Part shown: one piece after another, positions 6,490-23,523 of the stretch
How the letters are laid out: every line of letters begins with the position of its first letter
Numbering within the stretch: the stretch's first letter is position 1
From: an uncultured Oligoflexia bacterium
GTDB taxonomy: Bacteria; Bdellovibrionota; Bacteriovoracia; Bacteriovoracales; Bacteriovoracaceae
Direction of reading: 5' to 3'
Assembly: GCA_913058265.1 (NCBI GenBank)
Contig: CAJXPQ010000010.1
Location: 1 to 64,000, forward strand
Length of the DNA: 64,000 bases
The notes under the pieces: generated by a model
Seen by the model: only the letters and a program-made list of their open reading frames with translations
The model's database searches: none
Told to the model about the DNA's origin: nothing
Position numbers and translations under genes: made by a program

Positions 6490-6628
6490 ACTTAATATAT
6501 ACTCTAGATACGTTAGTATTTAAAGCAGCAATATTTTGAGACTATATGAGCTGGTGGCTGCTTCTTGGCTAAGAATTCATCACTACTTATAAAATACAAA
6601 ATATTATTTCTAAGTTATAATAAATATT

Positions 6629-6886
6629 ATGTACTTAAACACTGAGCCACTATTTTACGATAAACATTATAACCCGAACTCAGGTAGGTTTTTATCGGAA
6701 GATCCGATTGGGTTTGCTGGTAGAGATTTTAATTTGTATCGATATGTAGGGAATAATCCTAATTTTAAAATAGACCCGACAGGACAAAATGCTCTTGTTG
6801 GGGTGGTTGGTGCTTGTATTGCTGTTCAGTCAAAGTGCCAACAGAAGAAAAAAGATGATCCTTTCAAAAAACAAAATTTTTTATGA
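6629..6886 (+). CDS. Orphan Rhs tip (copy 2), short
   Basis: An 85-residue frame whose residues ~13-53 are an Rhs core end: HYNPNSGRFLSEDPIGFAGR, then LYRYVGNNPNFKIDPTGQ. After the DPTGQ boundary only ~30 residues remain: a short hydrophobic helix with two Cys, then a Lys-rich tail. There is no clear RBS, and the rest of the Rhs protein is absent. It begins at the same core position as copy 1 at 3625, with 20 identical bases. It is probably a displaced tip left by recombination and may be inactive. Confidence 0.6.
   Translation: MYLNTEPLFYDKHYNPNSGRFLSEDPIGFAGRDFNLYRYVGNNPNFKIDPTGQNALVGVVGACIAVQSKCQQKKKDDPFKKQNFL
6665..6684 (+). repeat. 20-bp repeat at Rhs tip start, copy 2
   Basis: Identical to 3661-3680 and in the same reading frame of the Rhs core. 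The left flanks differ, so both tips were joined to unrelated upstream DNA at nearly the same point. Confidence 0.7.
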
Positions 6887-6937
6887 AAAAAGAGAATCGA
6901 GAGAAACAGATTTTTTTAAAATACTTCTAAGTGAGGG

Positions 6938-7636
6938 CTATTTTGAGAAATAATATCCCATTGCCCTTTTACTTTTAAAGTGAATGGGCTTTTTAGGATT
7001 TGGCTCAAAGTATTTTCTAAGACGTACAACAAAATTATCTACAGTCCTTGAGTTTACATCAAGATTATAACCAAAGGCATTCTCAAGTAAGAACTTTCGA
7101 GAAAGAACGTTTTCTTCATTCTGATAGAGGACTTTTATGAGCTTTAATTCTTGTAAGGTCAGAGTGACTTCTCCTTCCTCAGCGAGCGCCAACTGTGACT
7201 CAAAATCTACCCAGTAGGTTCCAAACTCAATACGACTAGGGAAGGTATCAACTTGTTTTTCTTCCTTACTCCAACTGGACCTTTTTAAAATTCTCTCAAC
7301 TCTTAGAAGAAACTCATTGAGATCAAACGGTTTGGCCATATAATCATCTACACCTTTCTTAAGGCATCTAATCTTGTCTTCCACAGCATCTCTGGCCGAG
7401 AGAATAAGAATAGGTAGTCTCTCATCATAAAGGCGAATGTTTTCTAATACTTTAAAACCATCAAGGCCAGGTAACATAAGATCTAATATAATTAAGTCAG
7501 GCTTATAGGACTTCCAGACTTCGATTGCCTTTAGTCCATTATGACATATTTCGACCTCATAGCTCTCGCGAGTCAGAGTCATTCTTAAGCCTTCAGCAAT
7601 ATGTTTTTCATCCTCAATAACGAGTATCTTAGTCAT
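6938..7636 (-). CDS. OmpR-family response regulator
   Basis: Two-component transcription factor. Residues 1-120 are a receiver with the acidic pair in VIEDEKH, the phospho-acceptor in LIILDLMLPGLDG (Asp about 52) and the Lys of AKPF. Residues ~135-230 are a winged-helix DNA-binding domain ending RRAMGYYFSK-like (seen as SKRAMGYYFSK). Its start overlaps the end of the sensor kinase gene by four bases (ATGA type), so the pair is translated together. The nearest gene it might control is the fatty-acid desaturase upstream on the same strand, which would suggest a membrane or cold response, but nothing in the sequence shows the target. Confidence 0.93.
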   Translation of the reverse strand: MTKILVIEDEKHIAEGLRMTLTRESYEVEICHNGLKAIEVWKSYKPDLIILDLMLPGLDGFKVLENIRLYDERLPILILSARDAVEDKIRCLKKGVDDYMAKPFDLNEFLLRVERILKRSSWSKEEKQVDTFPSRIEFGTYWVDFESQLALAEEGEVTLTLQELKLIKVLYQNEENVLSRKFLLENAFGYNLDVNSRTVDNFVVRLRKYFEPNPKKPIHFKSKRAMGYYFSK

Positions 7637-8598
7637 TGCTCATCCTTTGGTAGAGGTAGGTAGAGACAAAATGCAGAGCCTTTTCCTAGACCGCTACTAC
7701 TTACTCTAAGCTTTCCTTTATGAATTTTTACAACATTATGAGAAAGGTAGAGCCCCAGGCCACTTCCCTTCGTAGACTTCCCAACTTGGTACATTTTTTT
7801 AAACACGTTTTTAAATTCAGTTTTATCCAAACCAATTCCATTATCTTTAAATGTTGTCACAATATATTTGTCACTTTTCTCGAATGAAATTTCTAGTTTC
7901 GGATCTTCGGATTCATTATAGTTGACAGCGTTTGTGATCAGATTCATGACAACAAGCTCTATTAAGTCAGGAACAATATCAACCTCATATTTCTCAGAGG
8001 TCTCTTTGAAGGAAATATCCAGCGTCTCAAAGTAGTGAGGATTTTTGATTGGAACACTTTTTACCAGCTCGATAATATCTGCTTTTTGAAAAGAGGGTTT
8101 AAAGTTTTTATCTTCAATCTTTGCAATCTGTAAGATTTGATTAACATTTTGGTTTAAGCGTTCTGTATCGTTTAGCATATAGGTTAAGTATTGAGTCTGT
8201 TCCTCTTTACTGAGGTCATACTTTAAGAACGTGTCCAAATATAGTCTTAGGGAGGCTATAGGAGTCTTGAGCTCGTGAGTAAAGCCATTAATGAAGTTCT
8301 GTTGGAAACGGTATAGGCGGAATAGTTTTTGGTAGTAGATAAAAATTAAGGCAACACCAAATAAGGTCAATGCAACAAGAACTGAGAGAAGAACTACCAT
8401 CACCCAGGTTTGAGTGTCTTGGAACTGATCTAAATCTAGTTTATATTTTTCGACAAATTGTAAAACAGTATCATTGACTTGTAGGTAGGATCTAATAAAG
8501 AGAAATAAAGCACTACTAATAGCAACTAGTGTCCCTACAAATATGGTAACAGGATGAAAAATCCACCAGTTCTTTATAACTCCCCCTGAGCTTACTTC
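7633..8598 (-). CDS. Membrane sensor histidine kinase, start codon unclear
   Basis: Kinase partner of the downstream regulator. From the ATG at 8403, 256 residues hold one membrane helix (about 3-24), the H-box FTHELKTPIASLRL, an N-box (NLITNAVNYNE), G1 (DNGIGL) and G2 (GSGLGLYLS). The same frame stays open upstream to 8598. That extension encodes a first membrane helix (WWIFHPVTIFVGTLVAISSA and on) and a short periplasmic loop, the normal layout of a sensor. No ATG, GTG or TTG occurs in the extension before the loop. A strong RBS-like GGGGGAG sits just before ATA-AAG-AAC-TGG-TGG. The true start is thus non-canonical, or the 5' end is damaged or misread. The kinase core itself is intact. Confidence 0.8.
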   Translation of the reverse strand, partial: EVSSGGVIKNWWIFHPVTIFVGTLVAISSALFLFIRSYLQVNDTVLQFVEKYKLDLDQFQDTQTWVMVVLLSVLVALTLFGVALIFIYYQKLFRLYRFQQNFINGFTHELKTPIASLRLYLDTFLKYDLSKEEQTQYLTYMLNDTERLNQNVNQILQIAKIEDKNFKPSFQKADIIELVKSVPIKNPHYFETLDISFKETSEKYEVDIVPDLIELVVMNLITNAVNYNESEDPKLEISFEKSDKYIVTTFKDNGIGLDKTEFKNVFKKMYQVGKSTKGSGLGLYLSHNVVKIHKGKLRVSSSGLGKGSAFCLYLPLPKDEQ

Positions 8599-8626
8599 TT
8601 AGAGAATTGTATCACCCTTTTTTAGA

Positions 8627-9709
8627 TTAGGCTTTCAGTAATTCTTCTTCAGGGATAATGTCAAATTTTGAATGATTTGTGTATGAAGATGAGGTGTTTT
8701 TAAACTTTTTATAGTCTTTAAAGCTTAACATTCTTCTATTTTCAAAGTCATAAATAGCGAGGTTAAAAGTTTTTACACAGTCCCAGAGCGTTAATGTCGT
8801 AGGGTTCTGAAAGTATTCATTTTCCTCGTATGCTTTCTCTAAAAAATAGTTAGGTATACTAGAGCTTAAGTGATGAATATGGTGAAAACCAATATTACCT
8901 GAGGCCCATTGAACTATTTTTGGTAATTTTAAATTCGAGCAACCTTCCATTGCTGCAGTCTCATAGTCCCAAGCTTCTTTCTTCTCCCAATAAACATCAT
9001 CGTATTGATGCTGAACATAAAAGAAAAAGACAGCTAAACAGCTTCCAAAGTATAAAAGGAAAAATTGATAAAATAAGAAAAATTCAAGACTTGTGACACT
9101 TGATATAATTGTACCCATAAGAATAATCGCGCCGTTTGTAATCCAAACACTTTGTTTTTCTTTTGTACCATCCTCTTTTGTATAAAATCTTTGTACAAAG
9201 AAATATGTATATAAACCACCAACGAAAAATACAAATGGGGGGAAGCGGCACACTCTATAAAATGCCTTACGGCCTAAACTTGCTTTCTCATATTCTTCAA
9301 TTGTAAGTGTCCATATATCACCGATACCTCTATGCTCTAGGTTCCCTGAATGCTTGTGGTGAGTTGCATGGGCCTTGGTCCATTGCTCATAAGGAGTAAA
9401 CCAAAGAATACCGGAGATATAACCCCAAAAAGTTCTCCATTTCTTAGACTTATAAAAAGATCCGTGTCCACAGTCATGCATAAAAATAAATATTCTTCCA
9501 TAAAAGACCTGTGCTGCACCAGCAACAAGCAAACAAAGCCAAGGAGAAATATCATAAGCTGCGTAGGCGATAAACCAAAATGCCACATAAAGGGACATGG
9601 TTGAAGCAATTTGCCAGTTACTTCTTTTAGTATCTGGTCTACTATATGGACGTATTATCTGACGCCAATTTATATGTTTCTTTTCATTTAATTCAGTTGT
9701 AGATTTCAT
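8627..9709 (-). CDS. Membrane fatty-acid desaturase (delta-12/omega-type)
   Basis: Integral membrane di-iron desaturase that puts a cis double bond into acyl chains of membrane lipids. All three histidine boxes are present: HDCGH (78-82), HATHH (114-118) and HHIHH (276-280). Four to five membrane segments lie between them (about 38-58, 60-77, 155-172, 192-232). Length (360) fits the acyl-lipid desaturase family. RBS AGGAGTGAG precedes the ATG. It has its own upstream region and lies just before the two-component genes on the same strand. Electron donor and regiospecificity are not visible. Confidence 0.9.
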   Translation of the reverse strand: MKSTTELNEKKHINWRQIIRPYSRPDTKRSNWQIASTMSLYVAFWFIAYAAYDISPWLCLLVAGAAQVFYGRIFIFMHDCGHGSFYKSKKWRTFWGYISGILWFTPYEQWTKAHATHHKHSGNLEHRGIGDIWTLTIEEYEKASLGRKAFYRVCRFPPFVFFVGGLYTYFFVQRFYTKEDGTKEKQSVWITNGAIILMGTIISSVTSLEFFLFYQFFLLYFGSCLAVFFFYVQHQYDDVYWEKKEAWDYETAAMEGCSNLKLPKIVQWASGNIGFHHIHHLSSSIPNYFLEKAYEENEYFQNPTTLTLWDCVKTFNLAIYDFENRRMLSFKDYKKFKNTSSSYTNHSKFDIIPEEELLKA

Positions 9710-19086: not shown

Positions 19087-21468
19087 GTGTTATCCGATAA
19101 ATTACTTATGACAAATTTGATCTTAATATTTACTATTTTGTTTTCGTTACAGGCGCAAGCTCAGCTTAAGTGCTCTGATATATTCAAACCAGCTGAACTG
19201 CTTACAAAGCAAAGCTCTTTGGATGATAGGTACCTATCAGGAATTGGTTTTTCTTACGGAAAGCGCTCAAATTATATCTCTTCAGAAAAAGAGTATAAGC
19301 AAAGACTTTTTAGTAAGCTGCACGATTATAATTATAGTGTTCGTGACAGAGCATTTAAGAAAGCACTCAAAAAAAATAAGTTATATGGTGATTATGAAAA
19401 CCTCACACTTACAGAGATTGAGCTCATTTCAAACTCTTATCTTTTTGTTGATCTGCCTCATGCTTTAGATGACTTATTAAAAGTAACCAAAGGGAAAGGC
19501 TCATACGTTGATTTTGCATTTACTTATGGTGATGATGCATTAAAGAATTTTCTTTCAACTAGAAAGTATCTAAAATCAAAGTCACCCGCTTATAATGTTA
19601 ATACCCTTAAAAATATTCATAAAAGATTAATGAAAGGTGGTATCGATGATATCGATAACACTGAGCTTGGAGTGTTCCGAGAGCAAACAGTATACTTTCA
19701 AATGTATGCTGAGGACGCTATACCTCCTGAACAATTAAAAAAATTATTGTCAGGAAATCCCTATCTAACATTTAGTAATCAAAAATCCACTTCTAAGGGA
19801 CTCGTTTACGGTGAAATGCTATATCCGTCTGTGGAAAATCTTACTGATGGAGTTATTCAAAAAGTAAAAAATGTTAATTCTGGGCTTGCTAAAGAGTTAG
19901 TCGACTATCGTACTATTGAAGATAAGATAGCGACGGTTAAATCAAAGTTAAGACAAAACCAAACGAAAGCAGAAAAAGAAAAACTTCAAAAGTCTCTCGA
20001 TAAACTGAAAGAACGTCATGATGAGCTTGTAGATAATACATATGTTCTAAATAAAAAAATGATCACATCATTAGTTGATGAGAACATGGAATGGTTTACT
20101 CGTGCTCGCTCGCAGTTGGGAGAATTAGATTCATATGAAAAAATTCGAGCCTTTTCCGATTTAGCTGCTGAAGCTCATCGAAATATGATTTCTATTCATC
20201 CTTTTGTAGATGGCAATGGTAGGACAATGAGAGAATTCTCAATCTACTTTGCCTTTGAAAAGGATGGAATCACTGCTCCAAGAGTTCTTTTTCCTGATGG
20301 CGATATTATGCTGCCACTTGAAAAATACCAGGATATGATTTGGAGTGGAGTTGTTGCTAACGTAAGGTTTAAAGATGATATGCTTTATCGTCTAAGACAT
20401 GGATTAAGTTTTAATAATTCAGGTCATATTTTTTTACCACCTCCATCTAGGCCACTGTCAGTTTCTCTTAAAAAGTCTTCAAGTACTGTAAGGAAAAGTT
20501 CAGGAAAGTATACTTATCTCCCATCGGATTATTACAGAGAATTTGTTGCTCATGCACTTAGCAAGGATAAATCATTACTAAAACGTCTCAAGAATGATTT
20601 TTATAATGTTAGTGAAGAATTAAAGTTAAAAGCAAAAGGACTCTTTTCACAAGATCATATTATGTATAATCATACTAAGAGAGGGATGGAGAAAGTTGCT
20701 TTAGAGCCAGTCACAGATACATTTGTAGAGTTTTATAAAAGAACAAGTTATAGCGATCCAACCTTTTATAAAGAAAAAGTCAGAAGGTTTTATGATAAAG
20801 ATCAGGTCATTTGGCGTGGTCTGGCCGATACCGAGAATATTCCGACTCAATCCGAAATCCTAGATAATTTCAGGGTTTTTAATTTTCATATGGCCTCAAA
20901 TGAAGTCTTAGGAACTGCAAACAATAATCAAAAATCTATCATCAGAGCGGCAGAAAAAGACTTCAAAAGATATAATGATGATCTTTTTGCAAATGATGAT
21001 TCTCTTATTACCATGGCCAAAGATCATTCTGAAACTGGGTCTTTGTATGGAAGAAGCTACGGCTACTCAACCTCTAAAGATAGGAAGGTAGGTAAAGCTT
21101 TTGCTATGGGAGCGATGGTTGTTGCTGACTATGGTAAGCATATGGACTTTCAACACCTACTTCAGAGTAGAGTTCTAGTAGGTCAGATGAAATCTGTAAA
21201 AGATGTTGATTTAACAACTCTGAGACAAGTTCGTAAAAAATTCTCTTATAAATACGGCCGTCAGCAAGAAGTTATGGGGATTGGCGTTGCTGATCCTGAT
21301 GCCATTATGATTGTTCAGACGCTTGACGAAAAAGGTAAGGCGATTAAGACCTATTTAAGGGACTCAGATAAGCCTAATCTCATTCGTGTAATTGAGGGAG
21401 AGGTCACTGTTGGTAAAGCGGTAGATGAATCAAAGGTATTAAAAATAATTGATTTAAATAAAGTCTAA
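19087..21468 (+). CDS. Exported Fic protein with ADP-ribosyltransferase-like C-terminus
   Basis: 793 residues. A signal-peptide-like N-terminus (hydrophobic residues 8-23, QAQAQ) implies export. A helical region precedes the Fic domain (about 170-440), whose active site is HPFVDGNGRTMRE with His371 to Arg379, the complete motif of AMPylating Fic enzymes. A long coiled segment lies at about 280-315. The C-terminal ~220 residues carry a second set of motifs in R-S-E order: VIWRGL (Arg577), YGYSTSKDRKVGKAFAMG (Ser661-Thr-Ser) and GRQQEVMG (Gln726, Glu728). These look like an ADP-ribosyltransferase. If so, one protein has two NMP/ADP-ribose transferring heads. It leads an operon with a radical SAM gene 19 bases on. 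No obvious Fic-inhibitory helix motif seen. Confidence 0.8.
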   Translation: MLSDKLLMTNLILIFTILFSLQAQAQLKCSDIFKPAELLTKQSSLDDRYLSGIGFSYGKRSNYISSEKEYKQRLFSKLHDYNYSVRDRAFKKALKKNKLYGDYENLTLTEIELISNSYLFVDLPHALDDLLKVTKGKGSYVDFAFTYGDDALKNFLSTRKYLKSKSPAYNVNTLKNIHKRLMKGGIDDIDNTELGVFREQTVYFQMYAEDAIPPEQLKKLLSGNPYLTFSNQKSTSKGLVYGEMLYPSVENLTDGVIQKVKNVNSGLAKELVDYRTIEDKIATVKSKLRQNQTKAEKEKLQKSLDKLKERHDELVDNTYVLNKKMITSLVDENMEWFTRARSQLGELDSYEKIRAFSDLAAEAHRNMISIHPFVDGNGRTMREFSIYFAFEKDGITAPRVLFPDGDIMLPLEKYQDMIWSGVVANVRFKDDMLYRLRHGLSFNNSGHIFLPPPSRPLSVSLKKSSSTVRKSSGKYTYLPSDYYREFVAHALSKDKSLLKRLKNDFYNVSEELKLKAKGLFSQDHIMYNHTKRGMEKVALEPVTDTFVEFYKRTSYSDPTFYKEKVRRFYDKDQVIWRGLADTENIPTQSEILDNFRVFNFHMASNEVLGTANNNQKSIIRAAEKDFKRYNDDLFANDDSLITMAKDHSETGSLYGRSYGYSTSKDRKVGKAFAMGAMVVADYGKHMDFQHLLQSRVLVGQMKSVKDVDLTTLRQVRKKFSYKYGRQQEVMGIGVADPDAIMIVQTLDEKGKAIKTYLRDSDKPNLIRVIEGEVTVGKAVDESKVLKIIDLNKV

Positions 21469-21487: not shown

Positions 21488-22552
21488 ATGAAAAACTTTC
21501 TTCAAAAATCACTTAATATTGGAGTTTCTAAGAACAAGCCTGTTAGTTTGATTCACTTTCTAACGAATCAATGTAATGCCAGGTGCCCTCATTGTTTTAT
21601 TGATTTTGATGATGAAACGGCGCAATCAGATAAATTATCTCTTGAAAGTATTAACAAGATGACCAAGTCCATGGGCCCTCAACTTATGAACGTTAACTTC
21701 ACTGGTGGCGAGCCATTTCTTGATACTGATATTGAGACTATATGTGAATACTATCTCAAAAATACTTCGATTGATTCGATGTTCTTTTCAACTAACGGTG
21801 CAATGACTTCAAAAATCATTAAAATAGCAAATCGATTATCAAAAGCTTACCCTAAGGTGATTTTTACTTATTCCATTTCTATTGACCATATTGGTGATAA
21901 ACATTCAGATTATCGACGTGTAAAAAAACTATATGAAAAAGCGATTGATTCTTATCGAAAACTAATTGAAATAGGAAAAAATGTACAAGCCAATGTAACA
22001 GTAACGGTTTGTGATTTTAATGTGGATGATATTGAGGAAATATTTAATGAGTTATATATAAATGAAAAAGTACATTCTATTACTGCTAATGTTGTAAGAA
22101 ATGAAGGTGTTTATCTTATTAATAAAGATAAGGCCTCTGCCATAAATCATGCTTATAAAAAATTAGTTGATCTGATTCTAAGTAATGATCTTCAGTATAA
22201 AAATGATAATTTCTTAGCCAAAATGATGAATGAAAAAGAAAAAGTTATGTATAATTATTTGTTAGATAACTTTTTAAATCCACACTATGTACTACCATGC
22301 CATGCTGGGGCAGGGCTATTAGGAGTCATTTATCCTAATGGAGATGTATACCCTTGTGAAGTACTTGATAAGAAGATGGGTAACCTTAATGACTTTGATT
22401 TTAATATCCTAGAACTATGGGCGAAAAATCAAGAATTAAGAAATTGGATAAAAGATACGAAGTGTCACTGCACATATGAGTGTGCTTGGAGCTATAATAT
22501 TCTTTCTTCACCAAAACATATGGGTAAACTTGCTTTAAAGGGTATTCTTTAA
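21488..22552 (+). CDS. Radical SAM protein with SPASM-type C-terminus
   Basis: 354 residues. CNARCPHC (Cys29, 33, 36) binds the radical SAM 4Fe-4S cluster; FTGGEPFLD is the SAM-contacting GGE motif. The C-terminal third has CHAGAGLLGVIYPNGDVYPC and CHCTYECAWS, a SPASM/twitch pattern with auxiliary iron-sulphur clusters. Such enzymes modify peptides or small substrates in RiPP and cofactor pathways. It lies 19 bases after the Fic/ART gene and overlaps the next gene by one base (TAATG), so all three are likely cotranscribed. No short precursor-peptide gene is visible nearby. Substrate unknown. Confidence 0.88.
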   Translation: MKNFLQKSLNIGVSKNKPVSLIHFLTNQCNARCPHCFIDFDDETAQSDKLSLESINKMTKSMGPQLMNVNFTGGEPFLDTDIETICEYYLKNTSIDSMFFSTNGAMTSKIIKIANRLSKAYPKVIFTYSISIDHIGDKHSDYRRVKKLYEKAIDSYRKLIEIGKNVQANVTVTVCDFNVDDIEEIFNELYINEKVHSITANVVRNEGVYLINKDKASAINHAYKKLVDLILSNDLQYKNDNFLAKMMNEKEKVMYNYLLDNFLNPHYVLPCHAGAGLLGVIYPNGDVYPCEVLDKKMGNLNDFDFNILELWAKNQELRNWIKDTKCHCTYECAWSYNILSSPKHMGKLALKGIL

Positions 22553-23523
22553 TGAATATTGCTGAGCAGGTTAGCGTTGTTATCCCTGTTAGATTCATTG
22601 ATGCGTTTACTAGGGTAGCTATCTCGGAGCTTCATCGTATTTATCCCGGTATTAGTATCTATATTATTTCCGACGAAGTAATTGATTATACTGATTATGA
22701 GATTATACAGATTCTTTCTCCCTCAAATAACCTTAGTGATAAGCGTAACCTTGGTGTGGAAAGTGCCTCTACTAAATATATAGCCTTTCTTGACTCCGAT
22801 GCTTATCCCCATGAGGGATGGTTAGAGACTGCGGTTACGTTTATGAACTTACGTGATGACGTTGGAGGTGTTGGAGGTCCAAATTTAGAATATAAAAAAT
22901 TAAACTTAGATCAATCAATACCAATTCTTGCCTATAGAAGCATACTTCTAAACGCTGAGCCTACACTTCCAATGAAAGAGAAAACTATGGAAGTCAATTT
23001 TATTATTTCATGTAATTTTCTTTTCAGAAAAGACGAGTATCTAGAACTTGGAGGGATGAATCCAAATATTTATACTGGTGAAGATATTGAGCTATGTTTT
23101 AAATATAAAAATAATAATTTAAAGCTGTATTTTCTTGAAGATATGAAGGTTAGTCATAAGCAAAGAATGTTTGTAGGTTTTCTTAAGCAACGTTTTGTTT
23201 GGGGACAAAGTGTTTTTACCGTTTTAAAATATGTTTATCCAACCTATTTAATTTCAGTCCTTCCTTTTATCGGCGTCCTTATAAACTTGGGACTCATAAC
23301 ATATGATATTTTTAATAGTAGTTTTTATTTTTTTAGCGCCATCATAGTCTATTGTCTTATTATCTTTCTTGAATGTATGAGACTTACATTTAACCCAAAA
23401 AAAATATTGTTGATTTATCCATACCTGTTTTGTTCACTCTACGCTTTGGGATGGGGAACTTTATATGCATTATTCTTTGGTGATATAAATAATAACTATA
23501 AAATGTATCAAAATAAAGAATAA
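22552..23523 (+). CDS. Family-2-like glycosyltransferase with membrane anchor
   Basis: 323 residues. The N-terminal GT-A fold has VSVVIPVRF, then KRNLGVESASTKYIAFLDSD (the DSD is the metal/nucleotide site) and a later GEDIELCFKYK (acidic catalytic region). Two or three membrane helices at about 230-315 anchor it. Likely transfers sugar from a nucleotide donor to a lipid or protein at the inner membrane. Translationally coupled to the radical SAM gene. Role in this operon is unclear; it could decorate a surface polymer or the product of the radical SAM enzyme. Confidence 0.82.
   Translation: MNIAEQVSVVIPVRFIDAFTRVAISELHRIYPGISIYIISDEVIDYTDYEIIQILSPSNNLSDKRNLGVESASTKYIAFLDSDAYPHEGWLETAVTFMNLRDDVGGVGGPNLEYKKLNLDQSIPILAYRSILLNAEPTLPMKEKTMEVNFIISCNFLFRKDEYLELGGMNPNIYTGEDIELCFKYKNNNLKLYFLEDMKVSHKQRMFVGFLKQRFVWGQSVFTVLKYVYPTYLISVLPFIGVLINLGLITYDIFNSSFYFFSAIIVYCLIIFLECMRLTFNPKKILLIYPYLFCSLYALGWGTLYALFFGDINNNYKMYQNKE

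What the first reader, a model, noticed from the sequence alone, without database searches (positions are those of the whole stretch)
19087..21468. One exported protein with Fic and ADP-ribosyltransferase-like heads
HPFVDGNGR is a complete AMPylation site; 200 residues further the R-S-E motifs WRG, YGYSTS and QQE appear in the right order. A secreted enzyme combining two host-modifying activities would be a striking effector for a predatory bacterium. QxE in place of ExE would point to a C3-like rather than arginine target.
Basis: partly seen in the sequence, partly recalled or inferred. Interest (0 to 1): 0.8.

Follow-up and report, generated by a model that had tools for sequence, protein, structure and literature searches.

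The report
Exported Fic–ADP-ribosyltransferase fusion of predatory bacteria
A protein that a predatory-lineage bacterium exports from its cell carries two different protein-tagging enzyme folds, Fic and ADP-ribosyltransferase, and the same unusual fusion is conserved across its phylum, which makes it a good but unproven candidate for a prey-modifying weapon.

Summary
ORF 19087–21468 (GTG, 793 aa) has a Sec signal peptide, a Fic domain (Pfam E=3e-12; HPFVDGNGRTMR) and a C-terminal domain that no sequence library recognises. I collected 58 relatives, all from Bdellovibrionota. R577 is kept in 55 of 57 that can be scored, S661 in 55/57, Q726 in 54/55, E728 in 54/56. An AlphaFold model of the C-terminal part (pLDDT 94) finds only ADP-ribosyltransferases among its 50 best PDB matches. 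R577 lies on a strand, STS ends a strand followed by a helix, and E728 starts a strand. The loop before it fits the published ARTT consensus aromatic-x-x-Q-x-E. The full-length model (pTM 0.88) matches Fic structures (AnkX, FICD) and then ADP-ribosyltransferases. The fusion occurs in 52 of 369 genomes (24 of 182 genera), including Bdellovibrio, and is absent from the plasmid and phage collections. Qualifications: delivery into prey and both activities are untested; 32 of 49 relatives with a Fic motif have Asn at the Mg-binding Asp; QxE suits asparagine or guanine targets, so 'C3-like' is too narrow. Best reading: an exported dual-fold transferase that acts outside the producing cell, probably on prey. 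I found no published description.

The parts
19087..19158 (+). Sec-type signal peptide (residues 1-24, predicted cut AQA|Q)
   Evidence: Read by eye from the translation: charged start, hydrophobic core, AQA site; relatives start with signal peptides, several with a lipobox. No signal-peptide program was available.
19534..20406 (+). Fic domain (about residues 150-440), with a flap region G195-x-x-R198...IPP and an inserted coiled-coil (about 250-320)
   Evidence: Pfam Fic E=3.1e-12; full-length AlphaFold model pLDDT 92, pTM 0.88, best PDB matches AnkX and FICD
20197..20232 (+). Fic active-site motif H371-PFVDGNGRTMR
   Evidence: A Fic motif with its His is present in 49 of 58 relatives; at the D375 position 17 have D and 32 have N
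20407..20781 (+). Connecting hairpin and helices (residues 441-565) between Fic and ART
   Evidence: AlphaFold model; less conserved than either flank
20782..21465 (+). ADP-ribosyltransferase-fold domain (residues 566-793), R-S-QxE type
   Evidence: AlphaFold model pLDDT 94.2, pTM 0.91; all 50 best PDB matches are ADP-ribosyltransferases; most conserved region, 51% mean pairwise identity
20812..20820 (+). ART motif 1: W576-R577-G578, on a strand
   Evidence: R577 kept in 55 of 57 relatives; model strand 129-141 = residues 569-581
21067..21075 (+). ART motif 2: S661-T662-S663 at the end of a strand, followed by a helix with V668-G-x-x-F672-A
   Evidence: S661 55/57, S663 52/57; hhalign aligns it with STS plus helix of canonical PF03496 ARTs of the phylum in register, although the whole-profile score is weak
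21247..21270 (+). ART motif 3, ARTT loop Y721-K-Y723-G-R-Q726-Q-E728 (x-x-aromatic-x-x-Q-x-E)
   Evidence: Q726 54/55, E728 54/56, aromatic at 723 in 53/54; consensus from PMC7827354; E728 is the first residue of a model strand

Best explanation
The gene encodes an exported two-headed modifying enzyme. Shown or strongly supported by sequence and model: Sec export; a Fic domain with a complete AMP-transfer motif; a rigidly joined C-terminal R-S-E-class ADP-ribosyltransferase domain of the QxE type; and conservation of this fusion in the predatory phylum Bdellovibrionota. Inferred: the protein does nothing in the producer's own periplasm, which lacks ATP and NAD. It becomes active where it meets prey cytosol or leaked prey contents, there uses NAD (and ATP or another nucleotide for the Fic head), and modifies prey molecules. 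The ART head is the more constrained part and probably the main activity. Its Gln726 favours an amide (Asn/Gln) or guanine acceptor over arginine. The Fic head modifies the same or a neighbouring target, or tunes the ART head.
For: Fic: and fold matches. ART: (TreX E=1.1e-3, probability 1.00, target TM up to 0.64; pertussis S1, cholera A1, Scabin and pierisin follow). Motif conservation. ARTT-loop match. STS-helix register. Family in 52/369 genomes and 24/182 genera; 35 loci in the genome-contig scan, nearly all with titles naming Bdellovibrionota groups. Fic and ART co-inherited: pairwise-distance correlation 0.82. Signal peptides or lipoboxes throughout. No conserved Fic inhibitory [ST]xxxE[GN] motif, and no gene is consistently next to the short forms across the family, as expected if the enzyme is kept harmless by export.
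Against: No activity, target or delivery has been shown. Foldseek E-values for the ART part are moderate (1e-3 to 1e-2), and no Pfam or PDB sequence profile recognises it. Most relatives have Asn where Fic enzymes carry the Mg-binding Asp/Glu, and two relatives with an intact ART motif have lost the Fic motif (L045, L046). The genome lacks a T6SS sheath protein, so the route into a prey cytosol is unknown. Lipobox forms may never leave the predator's envelope.
Confidence: 0.6

Rival explanations
1. The ART head is the only working enzyme; the Fic domain is a scaffold, a target-binding module or a regulator with weak or altered activity.
For: ART region is the most conserved (51% against 37% mean pairwise identity). 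The Fic acidic residue switches between D and N at least 4 times on the tree, and 32 of 49 have N. L045 and L046 have lost HPFxxGNGR but keep R, S and QxE.
Against: The catalytic His and the GNGR loop are kept in 49 of 58 relatives, some very distant (L128, L129, L133), and the window protein has the complete motif with Asp.
Confidence: 0.25
2. The protein is a periplasmic or surface enzyme of the predator itself, acting on its own envelope or on extracellular nucleotides, not an effector.
For: Several family members have lipoboxes; one group lies in a conserved run with pyruvate phosphate dikinase, a beta-lactamase-fold enzyme and a Mur-ligase-like gene.
Against: ATP and NAD are not normally available in a periplasm; both heads need them. 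The fusion is patchy (24 of 182 genera), unlike a housekeeping gene.
Confidence: 0.15
3. The Fic head transfers something other than AMP, for example phosphocholine as in AnkX, or UMP.
For: The closest solved structures of the full-length model are AnkX-CMP complexes.
Against: AnkX is only slightly ahead of FICD, with low TM-scores (about 0.35), so the ranking does not assign a substrate. The window motif is the standard AMP-transfer one.
Confidence: 0.1
4. The C-terminal domain is not an ADP-ribosyltransferase; the R-S-E order is chance.
For: No Pfam match; the loose motif order occurs in about 6% of shuffles.
Against: Fold matches are exclusively ARTs; motif residues are conserved in 57-58 relatives and sit on the expected elements.
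Confidence: 0.05

Closest known systems
R-S-E-class ADP-ribosyltransferases with QxE (C3 exoenzymes; ScARP, Scabin, pierisin)
   Same: R on a strand, STS at the end of a strand plus helix, aromatic-x-x-Q-x-E loop; Foldseek matches to Scabin, ScARP-type and pierisin chains
   Different: No detectable sequence similarity; larger helical insert between R and STS; fused behind a Fic domain; target unknown
Tre/TreX/TreTu Rhs toxins (interbacterial ARTs)
   Same: Best PDB fold matches; ARTs used between bacteria
   Different: Those are C-terminal tips of Rhs proteins with immunity partners; this one is Sec-exported and has no Rhs part and no recognised immunity gene
Fic AMP-transferases (FICD, SoFic, Bartonella Beps) and AnkX
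   Same: Fic domain with HPFxDGNGRxxR; best structural matches of the N-terminal half
   Different: No conserved inhibitory motif, signal peptide, inserted coiled-coil, fused ART; Asn for Asp in most relatives
Polymorphic toxins with Tox-Doc or Tox-ART-RSE domains
   Same: Both domain types are known toxin heads there (PMC3482391)
   Different: There the paper lists them as separate toxin domains; here both are in one conserved, non-polymorphic protein without a nearby immunity cassette

Membership tests
Fic/Doc family | Profile match above the curated cut-off | tested here: met
   PF02661 47.6 bits, cut-off 24
Fic/Doc family | HxFx[D/E]GN[G/K]RxxR active-site motif | tested here: met
   HPFVDGNGRTMR in the window protein; relatives often have N for D
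Fic/Doc family | Fic fold | tested here: met
   Full-length model matches AnkX, FICD, BT_2513 and Bep1 with probability about 1
Fic/Doc family | AMP (or other NMP) transfer activity | not testable with these tools
   Needs an assay
R-S-E-class ADP-ribosyltransferase | ART fold | tested here: met
   All 50 listed PDB matches of the C-terminal model are ARTs; E-values moderate
R-S-E-class ADP-ribosyltransferase | Arg on the first core strand, ST[S/T/Q] on the next, [E/Q]xE at a strand start | tested here: met
   Positions in the model; conservation
R-S-E-class ADP-ribosyltransferase | Match to a known ART sequence profile (usual, not defining) | tested here: not met
   No Pfam, NCBIfam or PDB-sequence match for the C-terminal part. 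hhalign against PF03496 members aligns only STS plus helix, P=0.003, probability 10%. The class is defined by fold and motif, so I still place it there
R-S-E-class ADP-ribosyltransferase | NAD binding and ADP-ribosyl transfer | not testable with these tools
   Needs an assay
C3-like ARTs | ARTT loop aromatic-x-x-Q-x-E | tested here: met
   Y723-G-R-Q726-Q-E728; consensus in PMC7827354
C3-like ARTs | Single-domain enzyme | tested here: not met
   Fused to a Fic domain. Not filed as C3-like
C3-like ARTs | Asparagine of Rho GTPases as target | not testable with these tools
   Needs an assay
Polymorphic toxin system | Variable toxin tip, immunity gene next door | tested here: not met
   Fixed architecture and no common adjacent gene for the short forms

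The most novel reading that the evidence does not exclude
A phylum-wide family of predator effectors in which one exported polypeptide carries out both AMP transfer and ADP-ribosylation in the prey, possibly on the same target, as a built-in double lock on a prey process.
Probability: 0.25. Interest if true: 0.85.

Novelty: new variant of a known kind. Interest (0 to 1): 0.58.

Why it matters
How Bdellovibrio-like predators disable prey from outside the cytosol is largely unknown; known secreted tools are mostly wall and envelope enzymes. A conserved exported Fic-ART fusion, whose ART half no family library recognises, gives a specific, testable candidate for covalent modification of prey components. 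It also adds a new ART subfamily. Fusing a Fic head to an ART head is not something I found described in the library searched, though that library omits most subscription papers.

Tried and rejected
Plasmid and phage collections: no match. PDB sequence search with the C-terminal domain or its profile: only chance matches. Viral fold library: best matches weak. Fic autoinhibition: [ST]xxxE[GN] occurs as SLVDEN 43 residues before the Fic motif but is not conserved, so rejected. A 'Fic lost' reading for L070 was my regex's mistake (it has HGFSDGNGR); corrected. Neighbouring radical-SAM/SPASM, glycosyltransferase and S37-peptidase genes do not recur beside relatives, so they are not treated as parts. 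Defence function: PADLOC hits cover only the Fic motif stretch; export makes a defence role unlikely. Papers on Bdellovibrio with Fic or ART effectors: none found.

Full report
What is there. The ORF at 19087-21468 (+, GTG) encodes 793 residues. AAGG lies eight bases before the GTG. The first 24 residues read as a Sec signal peptide ending AQA|Q (by eye). The only Pfam match above its cut-off is Fic, PF02661, E=3.1e-12, residues 304-388. The C-terminal 321 residues match nothing in Pfam or the PDB by sequence, and a 35-member profile of the C-terminal part also finds nothing credible.

Is it more than chance? The stricter form, with an aromatic residue before R and at the loop position, appears in 17. 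The case therefore rests on relatives and on the fold.

Relatives. The C-terminal domain is found in 35 of 129 genomes of the order and, with a profile, in 52 of 369 genomes and 24 of 182 genera of the phylum. A scan of about 85,000 species genomes gave 35 loci. Their record titles name Bdellovibrio, Bacteriovorax, Halobacteriovorax, Bacteriovoracaceae or Oligoflexia, with one title saying only Proteobacteria. Plasmid and phage collections have none. Of 58 distinct proteins collected (a few are contig-edge fragments), R577 is kept in 55 of 57 with a residue there, S661 in 55/57, S663 in 52/57, Q726 in 54/55, E728 in 54/56, and an aromatic residue at 723 in 53/54. Among 44 aligned full-length members R, the first S, Q and E are invariant (clearly degenerate members such as L047 were left out of that set). 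L047 and L134 look like pseudo-enzymes.

Fold. The C-terminal model from 35 sequences has pLDDT 94.2 and pTM 0.91. R577 falls on a strand, STS ends a strand followed by a helix, and E728 is the first residue of a strand. Foldseek against the PDB lists only ADP-ribosyltransferases in the top 50: TreX and TreTu first (E about 1e-3, probability 1.00, target TM up to 0.64), then pertussis S1, EcPltA, cholera A1, Scabin, ScARP-type and pierisin. E-values are moderate, so this is a remote relative. The full-length model (760 residues, pLDDT 92.1, pTM 0.88) suggests the two domains are packed in a fixed way. Its matches are Fic structures (AnkX, FICD, BT_2513, Bep1, BepA) and then ARTs.

ART type. 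The published loop consensus of R-S-E ARTs is x-x-aromatic-x-x-[E/Q]-x-E, the sixth residue choosing the acceptor: Glu for arginine, Gln for asparagine in C3 and for guanine in ScARP (PMC7827354). In canonical PF03496 ARTs of the same phylum the STS is followed by V-A-x-x-F-A; here it is V-G-K-A-F-A in the same register. hhalign aligns exactly this stretch, though the overall score is weak.

Fic type. The window motif is complete with Asp375. Of 49 relatives with a Fic motif, 17 have D and 32 have N. On a tree the state changes about 7 times, at least 4 forced by well-supported branches; L040 (N) and L041 (D) are close sisters. His and GNGR are retained, so catalysis is probably kept but metal binding may differ. 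No inhibitory motif is conserved. Two relatives with an intact ART motif have lost the Fic motif (L045, L046). The ART region is the more conserved (51% against 37% mean pairwise identity) and the two regions co-evolve in distance (r=0.82).

How it likely works. Export is inferred from signal peptides in the family; several relatives are lipoproteins by lipobox. ATP and NAD are cytosolic, so both heads should be silent until the protein meets prey cytosol or leaked prey contents. That would explain why no conserved immunity gene accompanies the short forms. The genome has secretins but no T6SS sheath, so the route is open. I commit to an exported transferase acting on prey, ART head dominant, at 0.6 overall. 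The two-domain architecture itself I hold at above 0.9.

Verdict. The effector claim is plausible and untested. I found no published description in the library searched.

Noticed in passing
L053, L055-L058, L060-L063, L065, L068, L074, L079, L081, L082 (for example L056:4140-4673): Relatives of 1450-2235 aa carry a long unannotated N-terminal extension. In 15 of 16 complete long forms a small exported protein (about 175 aa, no Pfam match) lies immediately upstream, overlapping or abutting; none of the short forms has it. It may be a chaperone or partner.
   Followed up: partly
L120:4141-6609 and 6588-8921: One Bdellovibrio-genus genome (G136) has two copies of the Fic-ART gene in tandem.
   Followed up: no
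L138-L157: Canonical ADPrib_exo_Tox (PF03496) ARTs are common in Bdellovibrionota: 47 of 291 genomes, none in the window's own genome. The phylum seems rich in ART enzymes.
   Followed up: partly
L040 and L041: Close sister proteins differ at the Fic metal-binding position (N against D), a natural pair for testing what that switch does.
   Followed up: no
G000:C12:3444-3731 (L116, L137): The genome has a second Fic protein (516-aa frame), at another place and not part of the fusion family.
   Followed up: no
window 21488-23523: A radical-SAM/SPASM gene and a glycosyltransferase-like gene follow closely on the same strand; not conserved beside relatives.
   Followed up: partly
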